Shown in pieces: positions 1 through 33,848 of a stretch of 35,666 nucleotides of DNA. Numbering within the stretch: the stretch's first letter is position 1; the number at the start of each line of letters is the position of its first letter. The position numbers and the translations under genes were made by a program. The stretch spans positions 6,505-42,170 of the forward strand of contig NZ_SMMC01000201.1 in NCBI RefSeq assembly GCF_009711445.1, written 5' to 3'. The notes under the pieces are model-generated. The model was not told the DNA's origin and searched no databases. It worked only from the letters and a program-made list of their open reading frames with translations. The DNA comes from Curvivirga aplysinae (lineage in GTDB: Bacteria > Pseudomonadota > Alphaproteobacteria > UBA8366 > Aestuariispiraceae).

Positions 1-228
1 AAAAAATGAGTTTAGAGGGCGTTTTTGTTTTGCGAATCCCAAAAAAGCAATGATCGATAAACTTGAAAATTGAAAAAGCCGTTTTTCAATCATGTTCTGT
101 AAAACTCACATTTTAAATTTTCGTTTTTGTGACACTTAAGTAGAAAAATTTAAAAAACGGTAGTTTTCTGTTTAAAGTCAGTTTATTAATAGAAAAGGCT
201 GAGCCAAAAAAATGAATCAGGCTATGGG
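1..228. other. AT-rich upstream region of the sensor kinase
   Basis: This AT-rich stretch has no credible gene. It contains a perfect inverted repeat at 69-90 (listed separately) and many A and T runs. I saw no convincing sigma70 promoter, although the kinase promoter must lie here or in the 69-228 interval. At its end a six-codon ORF (212-232) runs into the kinase start. The window begins inside this region, so the neighbour to the left is unknown. Confidence 0.5.
69..90. terminator. Perfect 9-bp inverted repeat, possible bidirectional terminator
   Basis: ATTGAAAAA (69-77), loop GCCG, then TTTTTCAAT (82-90) form a perfect 9-bp hairpin. The arms are A/T-rich, with an A run on one side and a T run on the other, so it could end transcription in either direction. 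It probably closes the gene to the left of the window. The stem is weak in G/C, so termination is inferred. Confidence 0.4.
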
Positions 229-2694
229 GTGAATAGATTCATATCGCTTAAACTGGAGCAACCTGTGTCCATCGATGTTAGTGACGTAAAAGAATATAGT
301 GATGAACGTGACATGCCACGTCGTACTCGTTTGGGTTTGAAATGGCGTTTGCTGCTGTTTGTATTTATTATTTTGCTCGCAGGCTTTAGCGGTACGGCTT
401 ATCTTCGTATTTCTGAAGGGTATGAAACCCGTCGTACGTTCCTATTGGAACGCGCTGAATTAGCCTTAAATACGCTATCAGAAACAATTACCACACCTTT
501 GTGGTATTTGAATAATCAAAGTGTTGAGCGTGCTATTGATTCAGCAATTGAATTGAAAGACGTCAAGCGCATCATTTTGGTTGGTAATGATGGTTTAAAC
601 GTTATTCGTGAAAATGTTCGTTCTTCGGCGGTGATTAATGCGGATTCTTATCAAGTTCTGACAGAAAAACTTTACTGGCAAGAAGATGATGAAAATGGGC
701 AAGTTAAGAAAACGCATTTAGCTGATTTAACTATGGAGATAGCGTTAACGCAGGCAGATGAATATCTATCTGCTGCGATATGGAATACAATTATTTCCTA
801 CTCAGTTATTATGATGGTTCTAATGGTTGTATTTTGGGCCTTTCTTCATAAACTTACAGGCCCGTTAGAACAAATGGCCGGCTATTTACGTTATATTGGT
901 AGTAATCGTAGTGCAGGTCATGTGAAGGAACTGGCGATTCCTTATCAATCCGAGCAAAATGAAATTGGGCAATTAGCGCGTTCACTAGAACGTATACGTT
1001 TACATAGTGTGGAGCTATTAGATTTACGATCCAATTTGGAAGGTAAGGTGAGCGAACAAACACATGAATTATTGGAAGCTCGTGATCTTGCCGAAGCTGC
1101 TTCAGAAGCTAAATCCAACTTTTTGGCTAACGTGACACATGAGCTTCGTACACCTTTGAACGCTGTGCTAGGAATGGCAGAGTTGTTAAAGTCTACTAAC
1201 TTAGATAAGAGCCAAAAAGAATACACGGATCTTATTGTGAATTCTGGTGATGCACTCCTAGTTCTAATCGGTGATTTGTTGGATATGGCGCAGCTTGAAA
1301 AGAAGACTTTAGAGCTTAAAAAAGCACCTTTCCAGCTAACAAATATTACTACTGGTTTGCGCAGGAACTTTGCTGAAAGCCTATCCATTTCCAAAAGTGA
1401 ACTTATTGTAAGAAATGATTTCTCTGAGGAAAACTGGTTTAAAGGTGACCTGCGTCGTATTAAACAAGTTCTTTTCGCGCTGATTTCAAATGCAATTAAG
1501 TTTACGCAAGATGGTAAAATTGCAGTAACGGTCTCCATGAATAATATACCTGAGCGTGGATGGTCATTAACAATGACTGTGGAAGATACAGGAATAGGTA
1601 TTTCCCAAGAAGATCAGGATAAATTATTTGATCATTTTATGCAGCTCGAAGGAGATTTGACACGTCGGTTTGCAGGGATGGGGACTGGGTTGGCCTTAGT
1701 ATCTTCTTTGGTTGAGATGATGGACGGGAAGATTTCAATTCAGAGCGAAAAAGGTAAGGGCTCTACCTTTACGGTTATTCTGCCGCTGGATTTAAGTAAT
1801 GTACAGGCTGATAGTACAATAGATGAAGTTAAAGAGGAAGAAGCATCAGAAACTTCCATGAATAGAAAACTAAATGTTCTTGTGGCTGAGGATAATCCGG
1901 TCAATCAGATGCTTTTATTAAAGATTCTGGAGCAAGCCGGACATAAAGTTTTTGCAACGGCGAATGGCAAGGAAGCCGTTCATGCTGTAAGGAATGATCT
2001 TTTTGATATCGTTTTGATGGATATTCAAATGCCTGAAATGGATGGCCTTACTGCACATCGCCTTATTCGCACGATTGAAGGGGCGAAAGGAAAAATTCCG
2101 GTTATCGCAGTAACAGCTAATACGCTTGATACAGATATAGAAAGATATACGGAAGAAGGATTTGATGGGTTCATAGGTAAACCTGTTAACCCACAAGCAT
2201 TGCTTTCTGTAATGGCAAAGTTATGTGGTGAAGGTGGTGTTACGGCAGAGAAAATTATTGCTGAAGCTGCGCATCGCGAAGAAATTTCCGGAAAAAATCT
2301 TGATGAAGATGAGCAAAAGGCCGAAGCGATTATTCGCGAAATCCAAGATGCAATGGGACTGCCTTTATTGGATGAAGTGCAATGGAATGAAACCAGCGAA
2401 GCTATCGGTGAAGATACGTTGATCAATCTGATGGTTGAAGTGCCGGATGAGTTAGATAAATATGCTGTGAATATTAAAGAGCTCTCTCAAGCGGAAAATT
2501 TAGATGCCTTAAAGAAGGAAGCGCATGCATTGAAAGGGTTAGCCGCAAATAGTGCTTTAAGTCGTCTCGCTCGCATCGGGAGTTTGATTAGTATCGCGGC
2601 AGGGCAGGGGGAGAATCCTGTTGACTTTGTTGAAGAGCTCGCCCCCGTTAATCTTGATAGTAAGCAAGCTCTATACAAAAAATTGACAGGTTGA
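229..2694 (+). CDS. Hybrid sensor histidine kinase (HisKA-HATPase-REC-HPt)
   Basis: This is a membrane-bound, tripartite (ArcB/BarA-like) sensor kinase of 821 residues. Transmembrane segments lie at about 41-61 and 188-207 and flank a sensor region of roughly 125 residues with no recognised fold. A HAMP-like linker and coiled coil (about 208-295) follow. The HisKA motif THELRTPLN carries phospho-acceptor His304. The ATPase domain shows the N box (N421), DTGIG (453-457) and GMGTGLAL (483-490). The receiver domain has acidic residues at E554/D555, phospho-acceptor D598, T629 and K651. The C-terminal HPt domain has His766 in EAHALKGLA. It is expected to relay phosphate His-Asp-His to an unlinked response regulator, since none is adjacent. 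The GTG start at 229 overlaps the stop of a six-codon ORF; ATG 313 is a possible alternative that would keep all domains. The signal sensed cannot be told. Confidence 0.92.
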   Translation: MNRFISLKLEQPVSIDVSDVKEYSDERDMPRRTRLGLKWRLLLFVFIILLAGFSGTAYLRISEGYETRRTFLLERAELALNTLSETITTPLWYLNNQSVERAIDSAIELKDVKRIILVGNDGLNVIRENVRSSAVINADSYQVLTEKLYWQEDDENGQVKKTHLADLTMEIALTQADEYLSAAIWNTIISYSVIMMVLMVVFWAFLHKLTGPLEQMAGYLRYIGSNRSAGHVKELAIPYQSEQNEIGQLARSLERIRLHSVELLDLRSNLEGKVSEQTHELLEARDLAEAASEAKSNFLANVTHELRTPLNAVLGMAELLKSTNLDKSQKEYTDLIVNSGDALLVLIGDLLDMAQLEKKTLELKKAPFQLTNITTGLRRNFAESLSISKSELIVRNDFSEENWFKGDLRRIKQVLFALISNAIKFTQDGKIAVTVSMNNIPERGWSLTMTVEDTGIGISQEDQDKLFDHFMQLEGDLTRRFAGMGTGLALVSSLVEMMDGKISIQSEKGKGSTFTVILPLDLSNVQADSTIDEVKEEEASETSMNRKLNVLVAEDNPVNQMLLLKILEQAGHKVFATANGKEAVHAVRNDLFDIVLMDIQMPEMDGLTAHRLIRTIEGAKGKIPVIAVTANTLDTDIERYTEEGFDGFIGKPVNPQALLSVMAKLCGEGGVTAEKIIAEAAHREEISGKNLDEDEQKAEAIIREIQDAMGLPLLDEVQWNETSEAIGEDTLINLMVEVPDELDKYAVNIKELSQAENLDALKKEAHALKGLAANSALSRLARIGSLISIAAGQGENPVDFVEELAPVNLDSKQALYKKLTG

Positions 2695-25970: not shown

Positions 25971-28838
25971 CTACTCAGCAGCCTGTTTGCTGAGATATGG
26001 CTGCAAATAGTGACCCGTATAACTGCCAGATACTGCGGCTACATCTTCAGGTGTGCCCATAGCAACAATTTCACCACCTTTATCGCCACCATCTGGACCA
26101 ATATCGATGATCCAGTCGGCTGTCTTGATTACCTCAAGATTATGTTCAATGACGACAACTGTATTACCAGTATCAACAAGGGTTTGTAGAACTTCCAATA
26201 ACTTGCGAACATCCTCGAAATGTAGACCGGTGGTTGGCTCATCAAGGATGTATAAAGTTTTGCCAGTCGCACGGCGGCTTAATTCTTTGGCAAGTTTTAC
26301 ACGCTGAGCCTCGCCGCCTGATAGGGTGGTAGCTTGTTGCCCAACTTTAATATAGCCAAGGCCAACCTTTTGCAGAGTGATCATCTTATCGCGGATGGAT
26401 GGCACAGCCTTAAAGAATTCAGCAGCTTCGTCCACTGTCATATCTAAAACGTCAGAAATGGATTTATCTTTATATTTAACTTCCAATGTTTCACGATTAT
26501 AGCGATGACCTTTACATTGATCACATTGTACATAAACGTCTGGTAGGAAATGCATCTCGATTTTGATAACACCATCCCCTTGGCATGCTTCACACCGCCC
26601 ACCTTTTACGTTGAATGAGAAACGTCCCGCGGCATATCCACGTGTTTTGGCTTCTGGTAATCCAGCAAACCATTCGCGAATTGGCGTGAAGGCACCTGTA
26701 TATGTCGCAGGGTTTGAGCGCGGTGTCCGACCAATAGGGGACTGGTCAATATCAATTACCTTATCCAGATGCTGGATGCCTTTTAATTCATCATAAAGCC
26801 CCGGTTGCTCACGTGATCCCATGAGGTCACGGCTTAGGGCTTTCCAAAGTGTTTCGATGGTTAATGTGGATTTACCACTACCGGAGACACCAGTGATACA
26901 TGTGAATGTGCCTAATGGAATTTCTGCAGTTACCTTTTTAAGGTTATTGCTGCGTGCACCAGATAGAACTAGTTTTTTGTTATTCTTGGCTTTACGACGC
27001 TTCGCAGGAATTGGGACCTGCATCATGCCAGTGATATATTGTCCTGTGACACTATCTGGGCATTGGAATACTTGATCTGGTGTACCTGCTGCAACAACGG
27101 TACCACCATTCACACCGGCACCAGGTCCCATATCGACCAGATAATCAGCCGCACGGATAGCATCTTCATCATGTTCCACCACGATTACTGTATTCCCAAG
27201 ATCACGAAGACGCTTCAATGTAGCGAGTAGACGATCATTATCACGCTGATGTAGGCCGATAGAGGGTTCATCCAATACATATAATACGCCTGTTAAACCA
27301 GAGCCGATCTGACTTGCTAAACGAATACGCTGACTTTCGCCGCCGGATAATGTACCAGAGTTACGCGAGAGCGTAAGGTATTGTAATCCCACATTATTTA
27401 AGAATCCAAGGCGTTCGTTGATCTCTTTCAAAATGCGATAGGCGATTTCTTGATCTTTTTCCGATAGTTTTTCACCAACAGCATCAAACCATTTACCTGC
27501 TTCGGCAATCGACATTTCAGCGACATTGGCAATATGTTTATCGTCAATTTTGACTGCAAGGGCTTCTTCTTTTAGCCTGTAGCCTAGGCAATGACCGCAA
27601 GCGTGAACCGATTGGTATTTGGACAATTCGTCACGTGACCAGTTACTATCTGTTTCACGGAAACGTCGTTCCATATTATTGATCACACCTTCAAATGGCT
27701 TTTTAGTTTTATAAGTGCGTGATCCATCATCATAGTAAAATTCAACCTCGACCTTACCGGTACCATAAAGCACTGCATTTTGAACTTTCTTTGGCAATTT
27801 GCTAAAGGCGGTGTTTGATTTCTCACCAAAATGCTTAGCAACTGCTTGCAAGGTTTGGCGATAATAAGGTGAACTTGTTTTAGACCACGGCGCGATAGCC
27901 CCATTATCTAATGGCTTATCTTTGTCAGGAATGACCAGCTCTTCATCAAATTCCATATGGGTGCCTAGACCGTCACATACAGGACAAGCACCAAATGGGT
28001 TGTTGAAAGAAAAGAGGCGAGGTTCGATTTCTTCAATCGTAAAGCCACTTTCAGGACAGGCAAAATTCGCGGAAAAGACAGTTTGCTGTCCCGTAGTCGC
28101 ATCTTCAGCAAAGAGAAGACCTTCGGATATGTCTAATGCTGTTTCAATTGAATCTGCCAAACGCGTTGCTAGACCTTCACGCACTACTACCCGGTCAACA
28201 ACCACATCAATGTTATGTTTAAGTTTTTTATCTAGCGCAGGCACATCTTCGATCAAATAAAACTCACCATCAACTTTTGCACGTTGGAAGCCACGTTTCT
28301 GTAGGTCTGCAAATTCTTTACGATATTCCCCTTTGCGACCTCGTACGATGGGAGCAAGAAGATAAAGTTTTGTTCCTTCTTCCATATCCATAATACGGTC
28401 AACCATTTGGGTAACTGTTTGGCTTTGGATTGGAAGGCCAGTGGTAGGAGAATAAGGAATACCAATACGTGCCCAAAGCAGGCGCATATAATCATAAATT
28501 TCTGTGACTGTGCCGACTGTTGAACGCGGGTTTTTTGACGTGGTTTTTTGCTCAATAGAAATAGCAGGGCTTAAACCTTCAATAAGATCAACATCGGGTT
28601 TTTGCATCATTTCAAGGAATTGACGCGCATAAGCAGAGAGGGATTCAACATAACGGCGCTGCCCATCTGCATAGATTGTATCAAAGGCGAGAGAAGACTT
28701 ACCTGAACCTGATAGACCTGTAATCACCACCAGCTGATCTCGTGGTAAATCTACACTTACATCTTTCAGGTTATGCTCACGTGCGCCACGTACGCTGATC
28801 ACTTTTTTATTGGCAGCTACAGGAGTTTCATTATTCAT
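25971..28838 (-). CDS. uvrA: Excinuclease ABC subunit UvrA
   Basis: UvrA is the damage-recognition ATPase of nucleotide excision repair and loads UvrB. The start is set at ATG ending at 28838, where AAGG lies eight bases upstream and the protein opens close to the [19 protein letters not shown] block; the frame extends further upstream without support. The 955-residue protein has two ABC modules (first Walker [10 protein letters not shown] at 41-49, second GVSGSGKST). Two LSGGE/Q signatures and zinc-finger cysteine pairs ([16 protein letters not shown] and CDQCKGHR) are also present. A perfect palindrome lies 41 bp upstream, between uvrA and the divergent EndoU gene. In many bacteria uvrA is LexA-controlled and neighbours ssb, which is not here. 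Confidence 0.97.
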
Positions 28839-28878
28839 GTCTTTAGCCTTAAACAAATCGGGTTTATGCTGAAATAAG

Positions 28879-28901
28879 AGATCAACTATATTGGTTGATC
28901 T
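28879..28901. promoter_or_regulatory. Perfect 8-7-8 palindrome between uvrA and the EndoU gene
   Basis: AGATCAAC (28879-28886), a 7-bp spacer and GTTGATCT (28894-28901) form a perfect inverted repeat centred between the divergent genes. It overlaps the -35 of the predicted plus-strand promoter. The N7 spacing is that of alphaproteobacterial LexA boxes (GTTC-N7-GTTC), but the half-sites are CAAC/GTTG, so LexA binding is only a possibility. Confidence 0.55.
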
Positions 28902-28919
28902 TATCAATAATCTTATACG
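28891..28919 (+). promoter_or_regulatory. Predicted promoter of the EndoU gene
   Basis: TTGGTT (28891-28896) and TATACG (28914-28919) are separated by exactly 17 bp. Transcription would begin near 28926, favouring the ATGs at 28939 or 28951 as start codons. The right half of the palindrome overlaps the -35 box. Confidence 0.45.
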
Positions 28920-28950
28920 GCAAAATATGTATATCTGGATGAATCACAAC

Positions 28951-29562
28951 ATGCGAAGCCATCTGTCAAGAAACATAGCGATGTTCACGTTTTTGTCCAT
29001 AGTTTCGTCAGTTCCTACTGACAGCATTATGGCAGGAGAGGCATTGCATTCTTGTGAATATGAAGGATTAAAAACGGAACATACCATTCAGGTGGATTGG
29101 GGGCATATCTTCTGTGGTGATGTAAATCGTAAAAAAACTAAAGGCACTGGCTATCATCATCGCCCAAATGGGGAGGATAGCAATACAGCCTATATAGAAG
29201 ATATTGACCGAAAGAACAGTGAAACAGGTGTTTATGAAGCTTCACCACTTTATGTGTGGGAAGAGGGGAAATGGTATATAAAAAGACGCGGTTCTACATT
29301 TTTTCCAGATCATTGCACAGCAAAACAAGTGATGAATAGTATTGCCTATGCGGCAACTAATGTTCATTGCCGTTACAAGAATGGAAAATGGGGAGGGCTC
29401 TCTGCACCAATACGCAATGAAGGGAATTACTGTTATGGCTCAAATGGAGACGCTTTAATCATCAATGGCTACTTCCGTCGTGATAATGGGCATGTAGCAA
29501 CAGCATGGCCATTGATGAGCAATCAACAACCAGCTTCCTGCATATCTATTGAACACGAGTAA
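28951..29562 (+). CDS. Secreted EndoU-family nuclease-like protein
   Basis: This 203-residue protein (from ATG 28951; ATGs at 28927 and 28939 are alternatives) has a probable signal peptide: MRSHLSRN, a hydrophobic stretch at about 9-21, and a small-residue region before LHSC. The rest resembles bacterial EndoU nuclease domains. VDWGHIFCGDV carries His52, GTGYHHRP carries His69/His70, and KRRGSTFFPDHCTAKQV carries the STFFP signature. These fit the two-histidine RNase fold found in contact-dependent inhibition toxins and in secreted EndoU proteins. Six cysteines suggest disulfides outside the cytoplasm. No immunity gene is evident next to it, as expected if the enzyme is exported. No strong ribosome-binding site is visible. 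It overlaps the convergent TraB/GumN gene by 17 bp. The family call rests on motif recall; the RNA target is unknown. Confidence 0.72.
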   Translation: MRSHLSRNIAMFTFLSIVSSVPTDSIMAGEALHSCEYEGLKTEHTIQVDWGHIFCGDVNRKKTKGTGYHHRPNGEDSNTAYIEDIDRKNSETGVYEASPLYVWEEGKWYIKRRGSTFFPDHCTAKQVMNSIAYAATNVHCRYKNGKWGGLSAPIRNEGNYCYGSNGDALIINGYFRRDNGHVATAWPLMSNQQPASCISIEHE

Positions 29563-30433
29563 TATTATAACCTTTTTGTTCAAGATACCATTGAACAGAT
29601 TTTTCTCCTCCAAGATGGCCTGCACCAACAGCAATAAAAATATTACCTGAACCTTTCATCATTGTATCAATTTGGTTGGCCCAGTTCTTATTTCGATCGA
29701 ATAAAAATGACTTCTGAAGGTTGGGGAATTGACTAAATGTCACATTCATAAAGTCCGCTAGCCCTTCCGTATCACCAGTTTTCCATAAATCTAACATTGT
29801 ATGTAGCATTTCGGGTGAATCCGCCATTTGGATAATAGAATCCTCAAAGAAACGTAGATCATCTTCTGGTGATAAATTTCCAAATAACCCTAGTTGCTGC
29901 TCAATTGTTTCAAGATATCGTATTTCTTTTTTGAACAACTTGGCTGCATTCTCTAGGGATTGGTCGACACCTGATTGAGGATCAATTTGCTCATGCATCA
30001 TCTGTATGTTGAGAAAGGTGAGCGCTGCTAACCAAGGGCGCATTGGCGCTAGTTGCTGTTTGAAATTTTCAGGTAAATTGTATTTTGTGATTAATTGCTT
30101 AAGCGCTGTGTTTGTCTTTGGCGTTAATAAATCAAATAAACTTTGCCCATTTTTGTTTAAACCATATTCTGATATCAGAGCGATCGCTTTCTGACCGGAC
30201 ATTTCATCAAGTGAAACTTCTAAATAGAGAGTATCGGTTTCCGTTAGGGCTTTCGTAATTTTTGGTGTACGCCATTTGATTTTTTTATCTAGCGCATGAA
30301 TTGTTCCAAAAAGCCAAATTTTACTATCATGATCTGATATTAACCATAAAGCTGGGTTCACCTTTTCCGAAGCATATGCAGGTGTAGATAAGACAAAAAG
30401 AGATATAAAGATTAGGGCTAGTTTTTTTAACAT
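29546..30433 (-). CDS. TraB/GumN-family protein
   Basis: This 295-residue exported protein has a signal peptide (MLKKLALIFISLFVLSTPAYA, cut after residue 21). It shows the TraB/GumN family landmarks: WLFGTIHALD (His46), YLEVSLDEM with its Glu, a long helical middle, and the C-terminal FIAVGAGHLGG (His273). The family includes GumN of xanthan clusters, TraB/PrgY and the Tiki proteases, and the GxxH and Glu residues suggest metal-dependent hydrolysis. Function in bacteria is unsettled. It stands alone on the minus strand, right after the RND terminator, and its 3' end overlaps the EndoU gene by 17 bp. Confidence 0.88.
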   Translation of the reverse strand: MLKKLALIFISLFVLSTPAYASEKVNPALWLISDHDSKIWLFGTIHALDKKIKWRTPKITKALTETDTLYLEVSLDEMSGQKAIALISEYGLNKNGQSLFDLLTPKTNTALKQLITKYNLPENFKQQLAPMRPWLAALTFLNIQMMHEQIDPQSGVDQSLENAAKLFKKEIRYLETIEQQLGLFGNLSPEDDLRFFEDSIIQMADSPEMLHTMLDLWKTGDTEGLADFMNVTFSQFPNLQKSFLFDRNKNWANQIDTMMKGSGNIFIAVGAGHLGGEKSVQWYLEQKGYNITRVQ

Positions 30434-30489: not shown

Positions 30490-33400
30490 TTATTCAGCTG
30501 CCTCCGCTTCCATATTAGGAGCAGAGTCATCAGTTTTGCCAAGTTTCCTTGTCTTACGTTTATCATACCAGTCTTTGATATTACCACGTAACATTAAGGC
30601 GCATGGGGTTAGAACCAACGTCAATACAGTTGCAAAGGCCAGTCCAAAGGCGATGGCAGTTGAAAGTTGAACCCACCATTGTGTGGAGGGCGCCCCTTGT
30701 GAAATTTCACGAGAAACGAAGTTAATGTTGATCTGCAATACCATAGGCATCAAACCAAGAATGGTTGTGATTGTGGTTAACATAACCGGACGTAAACGCT
30801 GAGCACCTGTTAACAGGATTGCTGTACGTATATCTTTTTCTGTTTGAACCAAACGATCATAGGTATCGATCAACACGATATTATTGTTCACCACGATACC
30901 GGCCAAAGCAATAACGCCAACACCGGACATCACTATGCCGAATGGTTGTCCAATTACCATTAGTCCGATGAAAACGCCTGCGGTAGACATAATAACCGCA
31001 AACAGAATCAAGAAAGCTGAATAGAAGCTGTTAAACTGGGTAACTAGAATCAATGCCATCAGGAATAGGGCGACTGCAAATGCGGATACCAAGAAATCCT
31101 GTGATCTTTGTTGATCTTCATTATCACCCTTGAACGTCACATCAACACCGTCAGGCAGTTCGAAATGTTCCATTGCAGCTTGAATTTCTTTCACTTTGGT
31201 GTCCGCTAGAACACCTTCTGCAACATCAGCTTTCAGGAACATAATACGCTTTGCATCTGTGCGACGTAACAAGCCGGTTTTTTGCTTTGGCGTACGAGTG
31301 ATGAAATTAGATACAGGAACCAAGCCTACACTTGTTTGAATGCGAATGTTATCTAATTGGTTCAAAGTACGATATTCAACAGGATAGCGTGCAAGGATAT
31401 CTACCTCATCATCGCTGCTATCGGGACGATAATCGCTGATTTTCATCCCCTTAGTTACCAGCTGAATTACGTTACCGATAGTGACCACATCTGCACCAAA
31501 TTTGGCGGCTTGTGCACGATCAACATCAAGTTCCCATTCAATTCCAGGAATGGGACGGCTATCTTCAATCTCGACAAGGCCATCAACTGTCTCAAGATAG
31601 GCACGTGCCTGATCTAGAACAGGTTCAATCAGTTCAGGATTCCAGGAAGAGAACTCCAGATGGATAGGTTTACCTTGTTGTGGACCTTCTCTTTGTTGTT
31701 GATGTTCGATCCAAATACCAGTGAGATCTTCTGTTCTTTCACGAAGGTCTGTGGTGATTTCTGTATAAGGACGACGTTCATCCCATGTACGGAACTCTAA
31801 TTGGATTTTACCAATGATATCTTCGGCGGTATCGTCACGCGCTTCAAAATTACCGGCAGAAGAATAGATTGTTTTGAACTCGTCTTTTTCTTCTTGTAAC
31901 TGAAGAACACGGCGTTCAACTTCTTTGGCAAGATAATTTTTTCCTGCACAGACATATTGCCACGGGCATGGATATTGATGATCCCGAGTTCAGGCTCAAT
32001 TTCAGGGAAGAATTCAACGCCTTTACCAATTGCTCCATACAGCATGTAAGTACCAATCAAAATACCGACACCAACAGTTAGACAAGTACCAGGAAAACGT
32101 AATGCGCCACGAAGCATCTTGATATAAAAGGCTGATGGGCCTTTCACATTTGATAAACCGTGCTCACCATGCCCGGCACTTAATTCTTGTGCAATCGCAG
32201 GATCCACATTGGTTTGTTCTAACAGACGTCCCAGAAGTTTGCCAAGCTTTGCACCCAAGAAGAGACCTAGAATAGCTAATAGTACAGCAACTAAAGCAGC
32301 TGCACCACCAAGGAAAGATTCAGTTAATCCCATGCCAATAGCACCAAAAGCAACGGCAAGGGCGATTGAAATCACAAGACGTAACACACCTGCTAAATTC
32401 GCACCTAATACAGGGATGAATACTAATGCCATGGCCAAAGATGCGGTTAATGTCGCAATCAGGGTGATTGGCATATACTTCATAAATTCACCCACAATAT
32501 CTGGCCAGAATAACAAGGGTAAGAATGCCGCCAAAGTCGTTGCCGTTGAGGCAATAATCGGCCAAGCCATTCGTTTAGCAGCTAATCCATAAGCAACTTC
32601 TTTTGGTTCGCCTTCTGCTAGTTTTCTATCAGCATATTCAGTAACAACAATCGCACCATCAACCAGCATACCAACTGATAAAATAAGAGCGAAAAGCACA
32701 ACCACGTTAACTGTAAAACCAACGATATAGAGGAATAATACACCTGCTAAGAAAGAGCCGGGGATGGCTAATCCTACAAGCAAGCCACCGCGCAGACCAA
32801 GAGCGCCCACAATCACAATCATCACAAGCAAGATGGCACTTGTAATGTTATTTTGAAGATCGGTTAGCATATCTTTGATATTGTTAGATTTATCTTGGCT
32901 AAACCCAACCTGGACACCTAATGGGAAACGTTCTGATTCTGCCGTTACAACCTCACGTACTTTTGCAATTGTATCAATGATATTTTCGCCTGTCCGTTTG
33001 GAAACTTCCAATGTCACGGCTGGTTTACCATTCACACGTGCAAAATTGGTTGGGTCTTTAAATGTTTTACGTAATTCAGCAATGTCACCAATACGGATTA
33101 GAGAATCGCCTTCTACCTTAAGAGGCATATCTAAAATATCTTTTGCACTTTCAAACAGGCCTGGAACTTTAACAGAAAAACGTCCTTGGCCTGTATCCAT
33201 AGCACCCGCAGCAATCAAAATGTTTGAGCGGCTTAATGATGTAAAAACTTCATCGGGATTGATATTGTAACTTTCCATTTTCATCGGGTCGATGATTACT
33301 TCAACAGCTTCATCACGATCGCCAATGATATTAACTTCAAGTACAGCTGGTAATGCTTCGATATCGTCTTTCAGTTCATCAGCGATACGAAGTAGTGTTC

Positions 33401-33848
33401 TTTCAGGGACTTGTCCAGCAAGTGTGACTACCAAAACGGGGAATTGACTGAGATTTACCTCATTAACCGATGGCTCATCAGTGTCATCCGGTAATTCTGG
33501 CTTTGCGGTATCTACTTTCTCACGTACATCATCCAATGCAGTATCCGCATCGAAACCGGCATCGAATTCTAAAACAACATTGGCACCACCTTCATAAGCA
33601 GTAGAACGCATTTCTTTAATGCCTTCGATACTGCGGACTTCCTTTTCAATAGGACGAACAAGCAATCGCTCTGCATCTTCTGGTGAAATACCTTCATGAT
33701 GAAGTGATACATAAATCATTGGGATATCGATATCTGGATCAGATTCTTTTGGGATATTGATATAGGCGAGGGCACCAGCAATCAAAATGAACAGCAATAA
33801 GGATAAAGCTGTTCTTGACCGATTGAACGCGGCACTGATTATAGACAT
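30490..33848 (-). pseudogene. RND efflux permease (AcrB/MexF-like), frameshifted at 31937-31942
   Basis: This is an inner-membrane RND drug/proton antiporter, recognised by its N terminus (RSRTALSLLLFILIAGALAYINIPKESDPD) order of porter domains and helix 4 LSVGMLVDGAIVV with Asp397. It is read as two pieces: the first 637 or so codons (from 33848), then a frame change, then the rest to 30490. The shift is in a run of six As in the coding strand (31937-31942); restoring one base gives a continuous 1119-residue protein with no other stop. Between helix 6 and the next porter part, residues about 484-565 are an unusual insertion with two hydrophobic stretches. ATG 33848 has GGAG nine bases upstream. 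It follows the membrane fusion protein by 24 bp. It may be a real pseudogene, a sequencing error, or expressed by slippage. Confidence 0.85.

What the first reader, a model, noticed from the sequence alone, without database searches (positions are those of the whole stretch)
28951..29562. Solitary secreted EndoU-type nuclease next to uvrA
The ORF combines a signal peptide, six cysteines and EndoU-like motifs (His52, His69/70, STFFP). EndoU domains in bacteria are best known as C-terminal warheads of polymorphic or contact-dependent toxins with immunity partners. Here it is free-standing, probably exported, without a visible immunity gene, and in a slot where many bacteria carry ssb beside uvrA. 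It could act in interbacterial competition, extracellular RNA scavenging or periplasmic RNA decay.
Basis: partly seen in the sequence, partly recalled or inferred. Interest (0 to 1): 0.6.

Follow-up and report, generated by a model that had tools for sequence, protein, structure and literature searches.

The report
Orphan exported EndoU-type RNA-cutting enzyme
An unnamed alphaproteobacterium carries a small, probably exported RNA-cutting enzyme of a family best known as bacterial toxins, but, unlike most of its free-standing relatives that were examined, it has no recognisable protective partner gene, which suggests a toxin turned into a solitary exported enzyme.

Summary
Window 28951-29562 (+) encodes a 203-aa EndoU ribonuclease: Pfam EndoU_bacteria 61.2 bits, cut-off 25.3; H52, H69, S115, T184 invariant in 16 aligned proteins; EndoU-like predicted fold. 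A hydrophobic leader and six cysteines suggest export. Being free-standing is usual: 18 of 20 EndoU hits in 385 alphaproteobacterial genomes are short open frames. Lacking a partner is the peculiarity: 11 of those 20 genomes, and 13 of 18 full-length free-standing genes examined, have a homologous 82-133-aa gene just downstream, related to UPF0231/YacL. A homologue follows an RHS-type EndoU cassette, and its predicted fold resembles, among unrelated folds, the immunity protein of an EndoU toxin. No copy was detected in the window or its genome. EndoU is divergent from uvrA in 4 of 14 family genomes; all 4 lack the partner and keep all six cysteines. Best reading: an exported, disulphide-dependent EndoU RNase that lost its immunity partner. 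Activity, export and target are untested.

The parts
28951..29562 (+). EndoU-type ribonuclease gene, 203 aa
   Evidence: start codon supported by the start of the G001 protein (M-x-x-x-LSR in both)
28951..29040 (+). probable signal peptide (residues 1 to about 30; end not determined)
   Evidence: hydrophobicity; low model confidence there; no SignalP run
29101..29514 (+). EndoU_bacteria domain, residues 51-188, with H52, H69, K111, S115, T184, W186
28839..28950 (.). 112-base intergenic region between divergent uvrA and EndoU, with an inverted repeat at 28879-28901
25971..28838 (-). uvrA, divergent neighbour; same arrangement in G001, G002, G007
   Evidence: ATG at 28838 chosen because homology begins at residue 37 of the longer ORF and a Met is residue 24
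29546..30433 (-). TraB/PrgY/GumN-family gene, convergent, 3' ends overlap by 17 bases

Best explanation
The gene makes a metal-independent EndoU ribonuclease that is exported through Sec, oxidised outside the cytoplasm to a three-disulphide enzyme, and cuts RNA there (periplasm or surroundings) with a His-His-Lys site. It descends from the secreted EndoU plus immunity pairs of Alphaproteobacteria, but in the uvrA-linked clade the UPF0231/YacL-like partner was lost; export and dependence on disulphides would make a cytoplasmic inhibitor dispensable. Shown: family, conserved residues, fold resemblance, no detectable partner, clade-wide uvrA linkage. Inferred: export, disulphides, activity and metal independence (from the family), loss rather than primary absence, RNA decay or scavenging rather than attack.
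For: Pfam 61.2 bits. H52 and H69 align with residues 162 and 178 of XendoU (2c1w) and have the same 17-residue spacing as H187 and H204 of CdiA-CT STECO31 (PMC9086364 passages), whose chain aligns 184..323 to model 49..188 (ranges only). Model pLDDT 86.6; the first 27 VIA-align rows are EndoU-family chains (Z 7.6-4.8), row 28 a chain of a CDI toxin-immunity complex (Z 4.3), the next row 3.2. All six cysteines are kept in 4 of 4 clade members although identity to the window protein is only 36-45%. DsbB is encoded in all 4 genomes. The partner profile finds no copy in G000, G001, G002, G007 at E<=1, while leave-one-out profiles recover each of 13 partners at E<=1e-8. The tree places the partner-less clade among partner-bearing rows. 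GC and GC3 lie within the range of nine other window genes, so no sign of recent import.
Against: Foldseek alone found nothing at E<=0.001, and none of the 50 rows it showed is an EndoU; no VIA row reached Z 8. Export rests on a hydrophobicity heuristic. Relatives with six cysteines in the mature part (L017, L019) still carry the partner, so disulphides alone do not explain the loss. The clade's fork is weak (89/81, drawn open) and also holds partner-bearing G004 on a long branch. G200, outside the clade, also lacks the partner. Whether the catalytic lysine is K111, or is replaced by R113, is unresolved.
Confidence: 0.55

Rival explanations
1. It is still a weapon: a released EndoU effector against other bacteria or against eukaryotic cells, with self-protection by export, oxidation or target choice instead of an immunity protein, as may be the case for Ribocin.
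For: Homologues are RHS-type toxin cassettes with an immunity-like gene. Ribocin, a signal-peptide RNase of the related RNase A-like fold, cuts eukaryotic ribosomes and not bacterial H69 (PMC13189344: abstract, section 7 and passages seen). A putative EndoU-like nuclease, All2314, is among the exoproteome proteins of Anabaena (PMC10957091, one passage).
Against: No delivery domain and no delivery gene recognised in the window (inspection only); the locus is shared with 3 relatives rather than exchanged.
Confidence: 0.27
2. A toxin whose immunity protein is of another family or unlinked.
For: The G002 gene is followed, with a 4-base overlap, by a SnoaL/NTF2-like ORF; G347 has a MafI-like partner, so partners differ between lineages. 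The own assembly is in 216 contigs.
Against: In the window no ORF follows; in G001 an ABC-transporter gene follows at +145 and in G007 only long ORFs at +129 and +148, where a chemoreceptor-like gene matches. No MafI in G000, G001, G002, G007 and no A4-type partner. The only immediate neighbour shared by the 4 genomes is uvrA.
Confidence: 0.12
3. A weakened or dead enzyme, so that immunity became unnecessary: the common Lys at position 113 is Arg here and Gly in the other three clade members.
For: K113 is present in 10 of the 12 other rows of A1 but in none of the 4 clade rows.
Against: K111 is kept in 4 of 4 clade rows and is also present, with R113, in the RHS-type cassette L048 (aligned by eye); H52, H69, S115 and T184 are intact.
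Confidence: 0.06

Closest known systems
CdiA-CT STECO31 (EndoU CDI toxin with immunity protein, 5hkq)
   Same: EndoU fold; two histidines 17 residues apart
   Different: toxic C-terminal region of CdiA with an immunity protein; here 203 aa, own leader, no partner. It preferentially cleaves tRNA-Glu (PMC9086364 passages); target here unknown
MafB MGI-1 NEM8013 with MafI (PMC4287609 passages)
   Same: secreted bacterial EndoU ribonuclease
   Different: MafB toxin with MafI immunity gene downstream; no MafI found in this genome
Free-standing secreted EndoU plus UPF0231/YacL-like partner of Alphaproteobacteria (described here)
   Same: size, leader, catalytic residues
   Different: partner gene absent here; six-cysteine set complete
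All2314 of Anabaena, putative endoU-like nuclease in the exoproteome (PMC10957091, one passage)
   Same: bacterial EndoU-like protein detected in an exoproteome
   Different: no function given in the passage seen; sequence not compared here
Ribocin RbcN of Pseudomonas aeruginosa (PMC13189344, abstract, section 7, passages)
   Same: RNase with a signal peptide and a structurally related fold
   Different: closest structure is CdiA-CT Ykris (RNase A superfamily), not EndoU; its eukaryotic ribosomal target is known
XendoU and human EndoU (2c1w, 9ftw)
   Same: two histidines in an H-x(14-16)-H spacing align (both), and the T-A-Y-P motif (2c1w only)
   Different: eukaryotic, larger catalytic domain; human and mouse enzymes need calcium (PMC11275989 passages)

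Membership tests
EndoU_bacteria (PF14436) | profile score over the curated cut-off | tested here: met
   61.2 bits, cut-off 25.3
EndoU_bacteria (PF14436) | two catalytic histidines | tested here: met
   H52, H69 invariant in 16 of 16 rows; align with XendoU 162/178
EndoU_bacteria (PF14436) | catalytic lysine | tested here: inconclusive
   K111 present; R113 at the position where 10 of 16 rows have Lys; no coordinates could be read
EndoU_bacteria (PF14436) | EndoU fold | tested here: met
   first 27 VIA-align rows are Nsp15, EndoU, STECO31 and XendoU chains, Z 7.6-4.8; unrelated rows start at 3.2. Against: Foldseek alone not significant
EndoU_bacteria (PF14436) | RNase activity | not testable with these tools
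   needs a bench assay
Polymorphic or CDI toxin | nuclease as C-terminal part of a multi-domain delivery protein | tested here: not met
   203 aa, only EndoU in Pfam
Polymorphic or CDI toxin | adjacent immunity gene | tested here: not met
   no ORF of 55 aa or more starting within 160 bases; none in the genome by two profiles; other immunity families not searched
Secreted EndoU plus UPF0231-like pair | N-terminal export leader | tested here: inconclusive
   hydrophobicity heuristic positive; SignalP not available
Secreted EndoU plus UPF0231-like pair | downstream partner gene | tested here: not met

The most novel reading that the evidence does not exclude
UPF0231/YacL-type proteins, including the E. 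coli protein of unknown function, are a family of inhibitors of EndoU ribonucleases, and the uvrA-linked clade is a secreted toxin domesticated into an exported enzyme that is switched on only by oxidation outside the cytoplasm and so could drop its inhibitor.
Probability: 0.3. Interest if true: 0.62.

Novelty: new variant of a known kind. Interest (0 to 1): 0.45.

Why it matters
It gives a natural comparison, with or without the inhibitor gene, for how a toxin nuclease can become an ordinary exported enzyme. The partner found in many relatives offers a directly testable function (EndoU inhibition) for UPF0231/YacL, an uncharacterised family. The enzyme itself belongs to a known family.

Tried and rejected
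Phage or plasmid origin: no match in phages; in viral contigs 19 stretches matched a pattern but none encodes a relative; three plasmid matches, one significant (Streptomyces, E 2e-7, a 671-aa protein), the others weak. LexA control with uvrA: the pattern GTTC-N7-GTTC with one mismatch occurs 25 times in the window, 24.25 expected, and not in the intergenic region. The inverted repeat at 28879-28901 has no visible counterpart in G001 or G007 (by eye). The promoter scan gave nothing on the + strand. The UPF0231 profile alone is too weak across genomes: 16 of 372 at E<=0.1, only 2 over the cut-off; one of the two, G068, has no EndoU and none visible in 3.2 kb. PDB search with A4: best E 0.0015, unrelated-looking chains. 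PDB search with P0001 listed only lectins at E 1.5 or worse; with A1, lectins scored best (E 0.0013) and EndoU chains at 0.08 and 0.21; the lectin stretch is taken as chance. VIA-align rows for the partner model form a middling background: LcpA 7.5, 5hkq_I 7.3, PURA 7.3, so the immunity-fold match is suggestive only. The link between six cysteines and absence of the partner (Fisher p 0.003) rests on one clade and is not independent evidence. Literature: no paper in the held CC-licensed library with UPF0231, yacL with EndoU or yacL with immunity protein; Michalska 2018 is not held, so priority is not established. Not scanned or left out: L038, L040, L049 and L050 partners were not put to Pfam; the tree leaves out G153, G346, G347, G177, G277 and G358.

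Full report
Observation. The ORF at 28951-29562 (+) is real: 203 aa, Pfam EndoU_bacteria at 61.2 bits against a cut-off of 25.3, residues 51-188, no NCBIfam hit, and the only EndoU found in the own assembly of 3.56 Mb, 98.8% complete, 216 contigs.

Who carries it. Of 59 genomes searched with the protein (the own one included), 6 match: own, G001 (46%), G002 (45%), G007 (44%), G004 (41% over 93 residues) and a weak G053. In 385 class genomes, 20 carry EndoU_bacteria; 18 of the 20 have open frames of 144-286 aa, the other two 378 and 482 aa. In 398 genomes drawn from the phylum, 10 match: of seven alphaproteobacterial hits six are short (200-229 aa) and one has a 563-aa frame; the three from other classes are two RHS-type tails (172 and 258 aa frames) and one frame of 1111 aa (the RHS label is by recalled motif).

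Catalytic site. In 16 aligned full-length proteins H52, G56, G67, H69, G93, S115, P119, G149, T184, A185 and P187 are invariant. A profile of these finds human EndoU and XendoU in the PDB, weakly (E 0.08 and 0.21), aligning H52/H69 with XendoU positions 162/178 (that these are its catalytic histidines is recalled). The same profile scored lectins better on another stretch (E 0.0013), which I take as chance. For CdiA-CT STECO31 the listed active-site residues are H187, H204, K261, T262, H321 (PMC9086364 passages); the VIA-align ranges 49..188 and 184..323 would put H52 and H69 at H187 and H204 (ranges only, the residue match is inferred). The lysine is unresolved: K111 in the window protein, R113 where 10 of 16 rows have Lys.

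Fold. The AlphaFold2 model has mean pLDDT 86.6, with residues 1-40 poorly defined. VIA-align ranks 27 EndoU-family entries first (Z 7.6-4.8), then a chain of a CDI toxin-immunity complex (4.3), then unrelated rows from 3.2 down. Foldseek alone had no match at E<=0.001 and showed no EndoU in its 50 rows, and no Z reached 8.

Partner gene. Downstream of many free-standing EndoU genes lies a small same-strand ORF. Thirteen of these, from G004, G053, G070, G083, G205, G209, G216, G305, G307, G311, G381, G743 and G746, 82-133 aa long, form one family: with each left out in turn, a profile of the other 12 finds it at E 1e-8 to 8e-29 among 1625 ORFs, while the best ORF of a non-member locus, the window included, has E 0.57 or worse. 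Six junctions are ATGA-type overlaps: G053, G305, G083, G070, G216, G311. Nine of the 13 were put to Pfam: the G083 member is UPF0231 over the cut-off (32.0 bits, cut-off 25), three others hit UPF0231 below it (12.3-17.8 bits), five do not. In the 385 class genomes the profile rings in exactly 11, all of which also have EndoU; these 11 were in its training set and in most genomes only 12 candidates were scored, so this shows specificity, not independent discovery. One hit outside the training set is a second copy about 2.4 kb from the first in G307, like the orphan immunity genes of toxin loci (recalled). An RHS-type EndoU cassette in another class (L048) is followed by a homologue (hhalign probability 98.3; UPF0231 25.3 bits, cut-off 25). 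The partner model (pLDDT 91.8) has the immunity protein of the STECO31 EndoU toxin, 5hkq chain I, as its second VIA row (Z 7.3, 2.9 A, 89 residues), tied with unrelated folds. I infer that the partner is an EndoU immunity protein; no binding was tested.

The window clade. Of the 20 class-sample EndoU genomes 11 have this partner, 1 has a MafI-like one (G347, 27.6 bits, cut-off 31), and 8 have none recognised: own, G001, G200, G153, G346, G177, G277, G358; G153 and G346 are longer proteins, G177, G277 and G358 compact ones. Of 18 full-length free-standing genes (16 plus G743 and G746), 13 have it and 5 do not: the window, G001, G002, G007 and G200. A whole-genome search with the partner profile at E<=1 finds nothing in these five and finds G004, a training member. 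G002 instead has a SnoaL/NTF2-like ORF overlapping EndoU by 4 bases. MafI is not found in own, G001, G002, G007 or G200 at E<=0.1. Other immunity families were not searched.

Synteny. In own, G001, G002 and G007 EndoU is divergent from uvrA. In the other ten family genomes the protein search finds no EndoU, except G004, whose EndoU lies on another contig than its uvrA; in eight of the ten the region upstream of uvrA was searched with four EndoU proteins and gave no hit. In G001 EndoU lies between uvrA and a liv-type cluster; in G003 and G004 other ORFs fill that interval. The own SSB genes are on other contigs. The immediate downstream neighbours of EndoU differ among the four.

Export and disulphides. 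All 16 aligned proteins have an N-terminal stretch more hydrophobic than any in the rest of the protein; start codons of the relatives were chosen by me, three of them GTG. All six cysteine columns are kept in 4 of 4 clade members and in none of the other 12 rows; DsbB is encoded in the 4 clade genomes. Together with the lack of a partner this suggests a protein active only after oxidation outside the cytoplasm, but six-cysteine relatives with a partner exist (L017, L019), so the link is not tight.

Tree. In a tree of 20 rows (the 18 above, L048 and a Streptomyces plasmid protein) the four clade members lie with partner-bearing G004 (long branch) on a fork of 89/81 support, drawn open, and this group is sister to partner-bearing rows; the labels need 3 changes. 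This favours loss over primary absence, weakly.

Conclusion. A known enzyme family in a form that is common in its class, made interesting by the lack of a partner that I identify here as a probable EndoU immunity family (UPF0231/YacL). What RNA it meets, and whether it feeds, cleans or attacks, remains open.

Noticed in passing
L032, L033, L035, L036 (genus g59): In one genus the EndoU/partner pair lies in a flagellar gene cluster; in L032 and L033 it directly follows fliO- and fliP-like genes, in L035 and L036 flagellar genes lie nearby (part of the output cut; gene names by eye).
   Followed up: partly
L033:6337-6663 and 12 homologues; L048:727-1041: A UPF0231/YacL-like small protein family is encoded next to EndoU genes and looks like their immunity protein.
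   Followed up: yes
L042, L043, L045 (family f139): Compact EndoU-like ORFs matching only profile positions 63/64-128, beside aldolase-like and lysyl-tRNA-synthetase-like (epmA-like) genes, without a recognised partner (names by eye).
   Followed up: no
L044:7152-7388: A MafI-like ORF (27.6 bits, cut-off 31) overlaps a compact EndoU ORF by 4 bases.
   Followed up: partly
L028:7494-7844: A SnoaL/NTF2-like ORF overlaps the uvrA-linked EndoU of G002 by 4 bases; it might be a replacement partner.
   Followed up: no
window 30490-33848 (-): Two adjacent ORFs (332 and 683 aa) look like one RND-type transporter interrupted between them; HlyD-like and PadR-like genes lie next to it (by eye).
   Followed up: no
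L037:3713-4126: A second copy of the EndoU partner lies about 2.4 kb from the first in G307.
   Followed up: no
G000 contigs C28 and C52: The window genome has two SSB genes over the cut-off, neither on the contig of uvrA.
   Followed up: no
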